Shown here: positions 57,023 through 60,090 of the stretch, piece after piece
Numbering within the stretch: the stretch's first letter is position 1
Layout: each line of letters starts with the position of its first letter
NCBI RefSeq assembly: GCF_015831345.1
Contig: NZ_JADWYS010000001.1
Location: 496,001 to 560,000 of the forward strand
DNA from: Caenimonas aquaedulcis
GTDB taxonomy: Bacteria; Pseudomonadota; Gammaproteobacteria; Burkholderiales; Burkholderiaceae_C
DNA: 64,000 nucleotides
Direction of reading: 5' to 3'
Program-made: the position numbers and the translations under genes
The notes under the pieces: generated by a model
Seen by the model: only the letters and a program-made list of their open reading frames with translations
Databases searched by the model: none
What the model was told of the DNA's origin: nothing

Positions 57023-59446
57023 ATGCCAGCCTCCCCATCGATCCAGGAACGTGCCGCCGCCTTGCGCGCGCTGCTGCACCATCATGCGCATCGCTATTAC
57101 GTCCTGGACGATCCGGAGCTCCCGGACGCCGAGTACGACAAGCTGTTTCGCGAATTGCAGTCGCTGGAAGAAGCGTATCCCGAACTCCTGACGCCCGATT
57201 CGCCGACGCAGCGCGTGGGCGGCAAGCTCCTGGAAGGCTTCGCGAAGGTCCGGCATCGCGTGCCGATGCTGTCCATCCGCACGGAAACCGACATCGAGGC
57301 CACCGGCGCGCGGAACTTCGACGCCCGCGTGCGGCGCGAACTGGCGCTGTCCGAGGCCGATCCGCCCGTCGAATATGTGGCGGAACTGAAATTCGACGGT
57401 CTCGCGATCAACCTGCGCTACGAAGACGGCGTGCTCGTGCAGGCAGCGACACGCGGCGACGGTGAGGTGGGAGAGGACGTCACGCAGAACATCCGCACCG
57501 TGGGTCAGGTGCCGCTGCGGCTGCCCCCCGATGTGCCGCCGGTGCTGGAAGTGCGCGGCGAGGTGTACATGCGCCGCGACGATTTCGAGAAACTCAACGA
57601 GCTGCAGCGCGAGAAAATCGCGCAGGGCGCCAAGGGCGAGAAGACCTTCGTGAACCCGCGCAACGCGGCGGCCGGTGCGGTTCGCCAGCTGGACCCGGCA
57701 ATCGCGCGGCAGCGCCCCCTGAGCTTCTTCGCGTACGGCTGGGGCGAGATCACTCCCGCCAGCGAAGGCGGCCCGGCCTTCACGACGCACTTCGAGACAC
57801 TGCTCACGCTGCGCTCCTGGGGCTTCCCGGTATCGCCGCGCACGCAGGTCGCGACCGGCGCGGAAGAACTCGTCGCCTATCACCAGTCGGTGGGCGCCGA
57901 ACGCGACAGCCTCCCGTTCGACATCGATGGCGTGGTCTACAAGGTCAACAGCCTGGCCCTGCAGCAGCGCCTGGGCTTCGTCACGCGCGAGCCGCGCTGG
58001 GCGGTGGCGCACAAGTACCCGGCGCAGGAGCAGCAGACGACAGTCGAGGACATCTACGTGCAGGTCGGGCGCACGGGCAAGCTCACGCCGGTGGCGCGCC
58101 TCGCGCCCGTGTTCGTGGGCGGCGTGACAGTGACGAACGCCACGCTGCACAACGAGGACGAGGCGCGCCGCAAGGATGTGCGCATCGGCGACACGGTGAT
58201 CGTGCGTCGCGCCGGCGACGTCATCCCCGAAGTGGTGAGCGTTGTCCTTGAATTCAATCCCAACGCAAATCCTAAAGGCGCAACGTTGCGAGGCGAACCA
58301 TTTTCGATGCCGCCCCTCTGTCCCGTTTGTAGAAGCACAGTAGTACGAGAGGCCGGCGAGGCAGACCACCGCTGCAGTGGGGGCCTAGTGTGCGCTGCTC
58401 AAAGAAATCAGGCTCTCATACATTTTGCCAGCCGCAGAGCAATGGATATTGAAGGATTTGGAGAAGAGCTTATCGAGCGTTTCGCAGAGTTGGGGTTGTT
58501 GAGGACTGTCGCGGACTTCTACGAAAACCTGTCCGAAACAAAGCTCACAGGTCTTGTGCTCCGGGAGGAGGCTCATGCGTATAAAGATGGAGTCGAACGC
58601 AAGAAGGTGGTTCGCATCCAAAAGGATCTGGCTGCAAAACTCATGCGTTCGGTAGAGAATTCTAGGACTCAGCCCCTCGCACGCCTGATTTTTGGATTGG
58701 GAATTCGTCACGTTGGAGAAACCACTGCGAAGGACCTAGCCAGATTTTTTGGCTCGTTGGACGAATTGCTTGGCGCTTCCATTGATACGCTGCTGCTAGT
58801 GGAGAATTTGGGTGAGAAGACGGCGGGGGCTATCCGCAAATTCCTATCTGAGCGGCACAACCAAATTGTGATTGGGAAGCTGGGCCGCGATCTAGAGCCG
58901 ACGCTCCCCTCTGAATCGGAACGAGTTAGATCGCTAGACTTTTTTCGACTGCTGGCAGCGTTGCAGATAAAGGGGCTGGGCGTCTCCACTCTCAAAAGGA
59001 TCGCCGCGAAGTATGGAAGTCCGAGTGGACTTGTCGAAGCGGTCGGGCAGGCGGCGCTTCAGCCCGGCAATCCTGAGGCCCAACTTGCAGCAGAACTCAC
59101 ACAGGAGCGTTGGGTCGCGGTGTTGGCGCAGGTGAACAGGTTAGGTATCCATTGGTCGGCTGCCGATGAGCCCAATGCGACTGCGCATGACTCCTCGCGA
59201 CCCTTGGCAGGAAAGACCGTGGTGATCACGGGATCTTTGGAGGAAATCTCGCGCGAGCACGCAAAGGAGTTGGCGGAACTCGCAGGCGCCAAGGCTACAG
59301 GCTCCGTATCCAAGAAGACGAGCCTTGTCATCGCGGGGCCGGGCGCGGGCAGTAAATTAGCAGACGCGCAAAAACTTGGCATCCAGGTCATCACTGAAGT
59401 AGAGTTTTTGAATCTGCTGCGCGCCTCGGGAGTGCTAGATGGATAG
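57023..59446 (+). CDS. ligA: NAD-dependent DNA ligase, chimeric (native 5' half, AT-rich 3' half)
   Basis: An 807-residue LigA, longer than the usual 670-700. The adenylation Lys is K123 in ELKFDGLAI; the NAD-binding Ia domain begins [20 protein letters not shown]. The zinc site is C433, C436, C451, C457. Helix-hairpin-helix segments include [20 protein letters not shown] and a further one at about 638-672 ([20 protein letters not shown]). BRCT spans about 726-807 ([20 protein letters not shown]). Up to about residue 405 the codons are GC-rich like the neighbours; from about base 58240 on they use AGA, CTA, TTT and AAT. The frame is intact and all catalytic residues are present, so the ligase is probably active. 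Confidence 0.93.
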
Positions 59447-60050
59447 GGCTATATCCGTCAAGATTGCTACTGACAGCCGTTTGCTTCGCAGAAGCTGCGA
59501 GTCACTACTGGGCATTGCTGCAGGTCTGATCGCGGATGGCGAATTGAATGCCAAAGAGATTCAATTTCTGTCAACTTGGCTTTCGGAGCATCCTGAGTTG
59601 GCGACAACATGGCCAGGTCAAGTAGTGCATATGCGAGTTCGGGAAGTGCTATCCGATGGGGTGATTGAGGCGAGCGAGATCGCGTATCTCAAGCAGACTT
59701 TGGCAGATTTGGTTGGTGGCGCCTTTTCGGAGGACGGCGCGATACCGGCTGAGGCCACTTCGCTACCTATCGAGAGCAATGCCTCGGTTGTCATTCCGAA
59801 TGCCGCGTTCTGCTTCACGGGCAGCTTTCTGTTTGGCACTCGAAGTGCCTGTGAAAAGGCCGTGCAAGCGAGAGGCGGTTTCGTAACCGGCATCAACAAA
59901 AGGCTGAATTACCTGGTAATCGGAGAACTGTCTAGCCGCGAGTGGAAGTATTCTTCATTTGGGACGAAAATTAATGCTGCAATGCAGCTGAAGGAAGGTG
60001 GGGCACCGCTAGTGGTCGTAGCTGAAGACCAATGGATAAAGGCCCTCTAG
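59439..60050 (+). CDS. TerB-like / BRCT-domain protein
   Basis: A 203-residue protein. Residues about 15-95 have the helical TerB-like pattern ([20 protein letters not shown] and [20 protein letters not shown], with paired acidic D-G-x-x-x-x-x-E motifs). Residues about 121-203 are a BRCT domain ([37 protein letters not shown], ending EDQWIKAL). BRCT domains bind DNA ends, nicks or phosphopeptides. The ATG overlaps ligA by 8 bases and lies wholly in the AT-rich tract, so it was probably acquired with the ligA tail. A function with the ligase is inferred; the role is unknown. Confidence 0.78.
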
Positions 60051-60076
60051 CGTCTTCCTACATGTGTCCTCATTTC

Positions 60077-60084
60077 TGTACAAT
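60077..60084 (+). promoter_or_regulatory. TGTACA operator core overlapping the -10 of the yefM-yoeB promoter
   Basis: TGTACA (60077-60082) overlaps a TACAAT -10 hexamer (60079-60084), 6 bases before the yefM ATG. The E. coli YefM-YoeB complex represses its promoter through TGTACA cores, so this is a probable autoregulatory site. The -35 (TTCCTA at 60055) is weak. Confidence 0.5.
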
Positions 60085-60090
60085 GATTCC

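What the first reader, a model, noticed from the sequence alone, without database searches (positions are those of the whole stretch)
57023..60090. Chimeric ligA with an AT-rich 3' half and a linked TerB/BRCT gene
The composition and codon use change abruptly inside an essential gene near base 58240, with the reading frame kept. The foreign half supplies the zinc finger, HhH and BRCT parts, an apparent extra HhH segment making the ligase 807 residues, and a following gene with its own BRCT domain. This looks like an in-frame replacement that carried cargo behind the gene.
Basis: partly seen in the sequence, partly recalled or inferred. Interest (0 to 1): 0.72.

Follow-up and report, generated by a model that had tools for sequence, protein, structure and literature searches.

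The report
Mobile half of a DNA ligase gene
The second half of this bacterium's ligA (DNA ligase) gene, together with a small overlapping partner gene, was swapped in from elsewhere, and the same half-gene-plus-partner unit has been swapped into other bacteria too, so part of a core housekeeping enzyme is behaving like a travelling module.

Summary
Confirmed and extended. ligA (57023-59446) is an in-frame mosaic. Codons 1 to about 406 are native and nest in the genus (very likely Ramlibacter). The rest, plus the overlapping BRCT gene, is foreign. The GC3 break (base 58241) has a likelihood ratio of 88, against at most 18.8 in 89 native-type ligA controls. 57 of 59 congeners visibly lack the extra segment; two are too incomplete to tell. 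Rhodoferax sp. U2-2l has the same arrangement at the same locus, with another breakpoint. 30 further protein clusters carry this tail. The tails form one clade (100/99), but their N halves are scattered (one clade rejected, p about 1e-40). In eight pairs, the BRCT gene follows the tail, not the N half. So tail plus BRCT gene is a unit that has repeatedly replaced ligA 3' halves, most likely by homologous recombination: the nearest tyrosine recombinase is about 750 kb away and no displaced 3' end was found. The TerB label is not supported; the toxin-antitoxin pair behind the unit is host-like in composition. Function is inferred: a ligase tail with its own BRCT partner, or an anti-phage variant.

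The parts
57023..58240 (+). ligA 5' part, codons 1-406: native adenylation and OB-fold half
   Evidence: 85-89% identity to congener L003 per 100 residues up to residue 400; GC3 0.87; nests in genus
58202..58249 (+). compositional breakpoint interval (codons 394-409), at and just after [11 protein letters not shown]; a predicted flexible linker (residues 411-421) follows directly
   Evidence: GC3 change point, LR 88.4; pLDDT below 50 at 411-421
58241..59446 (+). foreign ligA 3' part (zinc finger, HhH, extra segment, BRCT)
   Evidence: GC3 0.58; Pfam; tail clade with 27 other tails and L209, 100/99
58319..58399 (+). C4 zinc finger (residues 433-459)
   Evidence: PF03119 E 1.6e-8
58544..58615 (+). 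extra beta hairpin inside the HhH region (about residues 508-531)
   Evidence: model strands 512-519 and 525-531; 62 of about 80 residues align to congeners in 470-550
58682..58873 (+). HhH domain (residues 554-617)
   Evidence: PF12826 E 1e-20
58883..59119 (+). extra helical HhH-like segment (residues 621-699), absent from congeners
   Evidence: matches stop near 620 and resume near 700
59195..59416 (+). ligA BRCT domain (residues 725-798)
   Evidence: PF00533 E 3.1e-13
59439..60050 (+). co-travelling BRCT-domain gene (203 aa; PHROG 3989 family), overlapping ligA by 8 nt
59439..59446 (+). 8-nt overlap of ligA stop and BRCT-gene start, same length in Rhodoferax L045 (10001-10008)
60091..60363 (+). 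YefM-type antitoxin gene; host-like GC3 0.78, probably a separate acquisition
   Evidence: PF02604 E 7.9e-26
60363..60638 (+). YoeB-type toxin gene; host-like GC3 0.82
   Evidence: PF06769 E 1.1e-28
60635..61174 (+). peptide deformylase gene (def), right-hand native neighbour
   Evidence: PF01327 E 1.7e-46

Best explanation
ligA here is a mosaic and presumably functional. Its native 3' half was replaced in frame by a foreign 'tail unit': the zinc finger, HhH, extra HhH-like and BRCT parts of a divergent long LigA, plus an overlapping gene for a BRCT-domain protein. INFERRED: the unit spreads between Burkholderiales by homologous recombination, the left crossover falling in highly conserved ligA segments (before or after the zinc finger) and the right one between the BRCT gene and def; the unit is kept because the new tail and its BRCT partner work together as a ligase with a dedicated BRCT scaffold, analogous to XRCC1 with ligase III, or as a LigA variant that avoids a phage-borne inhibitor.
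For: GC3 break LR 88.4, against at most 15.2 in 29 congeners and at most 18.8 in 60 short-type family genes. 57 of 59 congeners show ligA without residues 621-699; 2 of 59 incomplete. The tail tree joins window + 27 long ligAs + L209 at 100/99, while the N-half tree needs 10 changes, 6 of them forced, and rejects one clade for the 29 rows (delta lnL 372, p 1.2e-40). P0021/P0022: N halves 88.4%, tails 97.6%; P0005/P0007: 70.2% and 76.5%. Rhodoferax L045 has the same order and an 8-nt overlap. Mantel tail-BRCT r 0.845, p 0.0004; partial, controlling for N, 0.77, p 0.0004; BRCT-N controlling for tail 0.25, p 0.22 (8 pairs). Breakpoints differ: 10 codons after the start of the RAGDVIPE motif here, 66 after it in Rhodoferax, as recombination rather than site-specific insertion would give. 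No native 3' remnant in the window, a single NAD-ligase match in the genome, and the nearest of five tyrosine-recombinase matches about 750 kb away.
Against: The donor is unknown: the closest tail is 60% identical. In 402 of 406 pairs of cassette rows the tail is the more divergent half (from the ranking), so only four pairs show directly a younger tail; the rest fit an old, diverse tail pool but also a fast-evolving tail. L209 has the tail without the BRCT gene and without a GC3 break, so the pair is not obligatory and not every carrier is recent. Only two complete DNA loci with the pair could be read; six other pairs are inferred from identical longest-contig lengths, a sign that can mislead: P0051 and P0180 share 2790 by apparent chance. 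No test of binding or function was possible. The genome also has 4 ATP-ligase-domain matches, so LigA may not be strictly essential.
Confidence: 0.72

Rival explanations
1. Ancient single acquisition: the long tail and BRCT gene entered an ancestor of these Comamonadaceae once, were inherited vertically with fast evolution of the tail, and were lost in most lineages.
For: Some related N halves also have related tails (P0005/P0009/P0017; P0004/P0012/P0014/P0016), so vertical inheritance or short-range transfer occurs within groups. In 402 of 406 pairs the tail is more divergent than the N half (ranking), as a fast-evolving inherited tail would also give.
Against: Among 60 genus genomes only the window's own shows the long tail, and among 89 Rhodoferax genomes only one (73 of 89 matched at all). 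N halves of cassette rows nest in several short-ligA clades, AU p about 1e-40. Window and P0003, whose N half also nests in the genus, are 82% identical in N but 56% in the tail, where 193 native pairs at 80-84% N have at least 69% tail. The tail is still AT-rich.
Confidence: 0.1
2. The BRCT gene is an unrelated phage-type accessory (PHROG 3989) that merely hitchhikes behind a recombined ligA 3' half; no functional coupling.
For: The family is common in phages and prophage-like contigs and away from ligA; one tail (L209) lacks it.
Confidence: 0.3
3. A site-specific element integrates in ligA and rebuilds the 3' end, as some prophages do in icd (recalled).
For: Recurrent replacement in one gene, foreign 3' half, cargo behind it.
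Against: No tyrosine recombinase match within about 750 kb of ligA (serine recombinases not searched), none recognised by eye among the ORFs of 100 aa or more in 54000-64000, no displaced native 3' half in the window, L045, L209 or L215, breakpoints 56 codons apart in two hosts.
Confidence: 0.04
4. Assembly chimera or contamination.
For: An abrupt composition break can come from misassembly (general knowledge; no call supports it here).
Against: Intact frame, 4.5-Mb genome in 2 contigs, 100% complete with 0.13% contamination, the only NAD-ligase match, and the same arrangement in Rhodoferax U2-2l.
Confidence: 0.02

Closest known systems
Mosaic core genes made by interspecies homologous recombination (the classic case is penicillin-binding-protein genes; recalled; of PMC8321556 only the search listing was seen)
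   Same: In-frame replacement of part of a chromosomal core gene by a divergent allele
   Different: Here one divergent half is shared by many hosts and brings a partner gene outside the native gene
Native long LigA of other Beta/Gammaproteobacteria (Rehaibacterium and relatives, several Burkholderiales families; 'native' is inferred)
   Same: Also about 800 aa with an extra segment at the same place
   Different: Separate clade, at most 42% identical over the last 253 residues among the 399 genomes of the order searched, the window's own apart, uniform GC3 in L213, L214 and L216
PR1 phage heterodimeric NAD ligase (PDB 9hu3, 9i5i)
   Same: Divides NAD ligase at the same OB/zinc-finger border; subunit A aligns to residues 74-410 of the model, subunit B begins at the zinc finger
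   Different: Two polypeptides in a phage; here one fused chain in a chromosome
PHROG 3989 BRCT proteins (phage K139 orf2, Pseudomonas phages)
   Same: The downstream protein belongs to this family (E 8.6e-62; phage relatives)
   Different: The phage profile is about 100 aa longer at the N end and of unknown function; here linked to ligA
XRCC1-DNA ligase III BRCT pair (eukaryotes)
   Different: Analogy only; binding not tested

Membership tests
LigA (NAD-dependent DNA ligase) | adenylation, OB, zinc finger, HhH and BRCT domains; NCBIfam equivalog score | tested here: met
   PF01653, PF03120, PF03119, PF12826, PF00533; NF005932 832.7 bits against cut-off 369
Intragenic recombinant (mosaic gene) | Two parts with conflicting trees | tested here: met
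   AU test
Intragenic recombinant (mosaic gene) | Composition break at the junction beyond controls | tested here: met
Site-specific integrative element | Displaced native 3' end of the target gene | tested here: not met
   native tail against the whole window, L045, L209, L215: only the ligA genes themselves and a weak match to the L045 BRCT gene
Site-specific integrative element | Linked recombinase | tested here: inconclusive
   nearest tyrosine-recombinase match about 750 kb away; serine recombinases not searched
PHROG 3989 | Profile match over most of the protein | tested here: met
   residues 17-203, E 8.6e-62
BRCT domain (downstream protein) | BRCT sequence profile and fold | tested here: met
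TerB | PF05099 match over its cut-off | tested here: not met
   2 of 25 members, best E 0.037, 14.7 bits against cut-off 24.4 in P0240; profile comparison 0.8%
Known anti-phage system | PADLOC model match beyond a lone BRCT domain | tested here: inconclusive
   only candidate PDC-S48, E 0.0025 for the partner (residues 62-166) and 1.5e-11 for LigA (residues 717-800, its BRCT)

The most novel reading that the evidence does not exclude
A mobile 'ligase-tail module': a diversified pool of LigA C-terminal halves, each co-encoded with its own BRCT partner, repeatedly overwrites the 3' half of host ligA by recombination and turns LigA into a two-protein BRCT-BRCT ligase complex, a bacterial counterpart of XRCC1-ligase III, kept by an arms race with phages that use or inhibit host LigA.
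Probability: 0.25. Interest if true: 0.85.

Novelty: new variant of a known kind. Interest (0 to 1): 0.64.

Why it matters
Core informational genes are thought to resist transfer. Here half of a DNA ligase gene plus an overlapping partner moves as a unit across genera while the catalytic half stays native. That gives a natural domain-swap series to test which LigA functions sit in the tail, whether bacteria have BRCT-BRCT ligase complexes, and what selects for tail turnover. It also warns that ligA trees can mislead, because the two halves can have different histories. The listings of nine searches of the open-access PMC library showed no paper describing it; subscription papers were not covered.

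Tried and rejected
Site-specific integration: rejected (nearest tyrosine recombinase about 750 kb away; no remnant; unequal breakpoints). Single ancient origin: AU test rejects one clade for the N halves. TA pair as part of the foreign unit: GC3 0.78 and 0.82 against 0.55 for the BRCT gene. YoeB-like genes occur in 13 of 60 genus genomes including this one; whether any lies beside ligA was not checked systematically. The Rhodoferax TA is of another type, Phd with PIN. TerB: not supported. Known defence family: only a weak BRCT-level match. Viral or plasmid carriage of the tail: 155 plasmid and 97 phage records matched, all under 60% identity; the 15 and 12 listed rows match in two or three pieces, as short ligases do. 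No viral locus that I held (80 of 92 BRCT-family loci, 35 ligA loci) had the BRCT gene next to a long tail. L209 showed no GC3 break (LR 5.1): a result against recent transfer in every carrier. Fold search on the whole LigA model tested mainly residues 62-412; the extra segment's fold was not searched alone. Literature: only search listings were seen, no paper was opened; papers on the PR1 ligase and GAPS2 were not found.

Rows dropped: P0013, P0015, P0019 (fragments), P0107, P0052 and L007 (partial) from the first trees. In some searches also P0041, P0042, P0044, P0048, P0055, P0061, P0062, P0064, P0066, P0085, all but five of 28 genus rows, L217 (cut), L045 (same as P0004) and L232 (no frame found). 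The 29 congeners include partial L007. The 60 controls were picked from the listed matches among short-type ones.

Full report
OBSERVATION. ligA runs 57023-59446 (807 aa). GC drops from about 0.70 to 0.50 near 58240. On third codon positions the best single change point is after codon 406 (base 58241; interval 394-409), LR 88.4; the largest of 500 permutations is 25.6. The 29 congener ligA genes (one partial) give at most 15.2. 60 further ligA genes of the family, picked from the short-type matches listed, give median 5.6 and maximum 18.8, 0 of 60 above 40. GC3 is 0.87 in codons 1-405, 0.58 after them and 0.55 in the BRCT gene; the antitoxin, toxin and def genes are 0.78, 0.82 and 0.89.

RELATIVES. 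All 60 genus genomes match LigA. In 57 of 59 congeners a match ends near residue 620 or earlier and another resumes near 700, so residues 621-699 are missing; G029 and G041 matched only in the N-terminal part or up to 620. In 26 of 29 congener loci with at least 735 nt readable behind ligA, no BRCT gene is there; three are cut too short. A named Ramlibacter ligase (P0113) is 90% identical to congeners L005 and L006, so the genus is very likely Ramlibacter (inference). Against L003 the window is 85-89% identical per 100 residues up to residue 400, then 34-63%.

THE TAIL FAMILY. A search with residues 408-807 found the window's own protein and then 30 clusters (P0002-P0031) with 93-98% query coverage and 48-60% identity. 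Only two carry an organism name: Rhodoferax sp. U2-2l (P0004) and a Polaromonas MAG (P0020); most of the others probably come from metagenomes (inference). P0032 (partial, 64% coverage) follows, then ordinary short ligases and other long ones at 40-43%. The BRCT protein has 139 homologues, 120 listed, one of them its own. Six of the 30 long-ligase clusters share their exact longest-contig length, and a source, with a BRCT cluster: 14814, 33272, 14157, 28373, 33394 and 7000 bases. I read these as linked pairs (inference); P0051 and P0180 share 2790 but no source, probably by chance.

RHODOFERAX. A scan of genome contigs gave 86 relatives of the BRCT family, 80 kept. Only L045 (Rhodoferax sp. 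U2-2l) has the long ligA directly upstream. Its order is smc, zipA (both names recalled), ligA of 812 aa, BRCT gene overlapping by 8 nt, Phd-like and PIN genes, def, glnD-like gene, the same order as the window apart from the TA type and a methyltransferase gene. Its GC3 break lies at codon 468 (459-470), after the zinc finger, against 406 here. Among 89 genomes of that genus, 3 have a BRCT-family match; in the other two no ligA lies in the fetched locus. For the tail, 73 of 89 matched and only U2-2l in one piece; the others listed are split or partial, 16 had no match.

WIDER FAMILY. In 399 family genomes, 13 have a BRCT-family match, 9 of them strong including the window's own, which alone is beside ligA within the fetched flank of about 1.5 kb; three of the four weak ones are the BRCT of ligA itself. 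In 299 family genomes, single-piece long ligA matches occur in five further genera in the listed part. I fetched eight such loci and one truncated. L209 belongs to the window's tail clade but has no BRCT gene and no GC3 break; L213, L214 and L216 group with long ligases of other families; L210-L212 and L215 form another clade. L215 is a second type of foreign-looking tail: GC3 0.50 to 0.22 at codon 467, LR 72, followed directly by def-like and glnD-like genes (named by eye) without a BRCT gene. In 399 genomes of the order, some families have long ligA commonly, at most 42% identical to this tail.

TREES. Tail (residues 471-807, 70 rows): window + 27 long + L209 form one clade, 100/99. N half (66-400): the window nests with congeners (97/83 with L003 and L008), P0003 with another congener (100/81), and other long rows scatter among short ones; the label needs 10 changes, 6 forced. 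Holding the 29 cassette rows together costs 372 lnL, p 1.2e-40. The tail is closer than the N half in 4 of 406 pairs: P0021/P0022 (97.6 against 88.4%) and P0007 with P0005, P0009 and P0010; in the others it is more divergent. N and tail identity correlate at 0.81 in native pairs and 0.52 in cassette pairs. This fits an old, diverse tail pool moving among hosts, or a tail that also evolves fast.

UNIT. The partial correlations are 0.77 (p 0.0004) and 0.25 (p 0.22).

PROTEINS. The LigA model (pLDDT 85) has flexible linkers at 411-421 and 716-724, an added hairpin at 512-531 and five helices at 640-706. The break at codon 406 coincides with the OB/zinc-finger border, where the PR1 phage ligase is split into two subunits. 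The BRCT-protein model (pLDDT 72.5) has a helical N part and a BRCT fold at 118-203. It belongs to PHROG 3989, found in phages such as K139. TerB is not supported.

MECHANISM. One tail clade on many N halves, unequal breakpoints in conserved segments, no tyrosine recombinase within about 750 kb and no leftover native 3' half point to homologous recombination with ligA on the left and the ligA-def interval on the right. The overlap and co-divergence suggest that LigA tail and BRCT protein act together; this is inference. The chimera is the only NAD-ligase match of the genome, so it is presumably active; four ATP-ligase-domain matches exist.

LIMITS. Two readable paired loci, one tail without partner (L209), no donor found, no functional test. 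The difference of breakpoints rests on composition, not on parental sequences.

Noticed in passing
L215 (G215), ligA and following def: Another ligA in the same family with an AT-rich foreign-looking 3' part (GC3 0.50 to 0.22 at codon 467, LR 72) of a different tail clade, without BRCT gene, followed directly by a def-like gene.
   Followed up: partly
L059 and L063, about 10001-12950: In two rhizobia a stand-alone member of the BRCT family lies convergent with ligA, 18 and 25 bases apart: an independent neighbourhood with ligA.
   Followed up: partly
L061, L073, L094, L096, L102, L108, L112, L116, L117: BRCT-family gene lies within about 3.5 kb of a uvrA-like gene (named by eye) in 9 of 80 loci, mostly sphingomonads, hinting at a DNA-repair neighbourhood.
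   Followed up: partly
P0009, P0012, P0031 around the OB/zinc-finger linker: Some cassette ligases have long odd linkers at the border where the short ligases aligned are nearly uniform, possibly recombination scars.
   Followed up: no
window 60091-60638 and L045 10763-11433: Different toxin-antitoxin pairs (YefM/YoeB; Phd with PIN) stand between the BRCT gene and def in the two carriers.
   Followed up: partly
phage and metagenome records: BRCT-family proteins of about 200 aa are often annotated as 'NAD-dependent DNA ligase'.
   Followed up: no
G000:C1, four places: The genome carries four matches to the ATP-dependent DNA ligase domain besides the single LigA.
   Followed up: no
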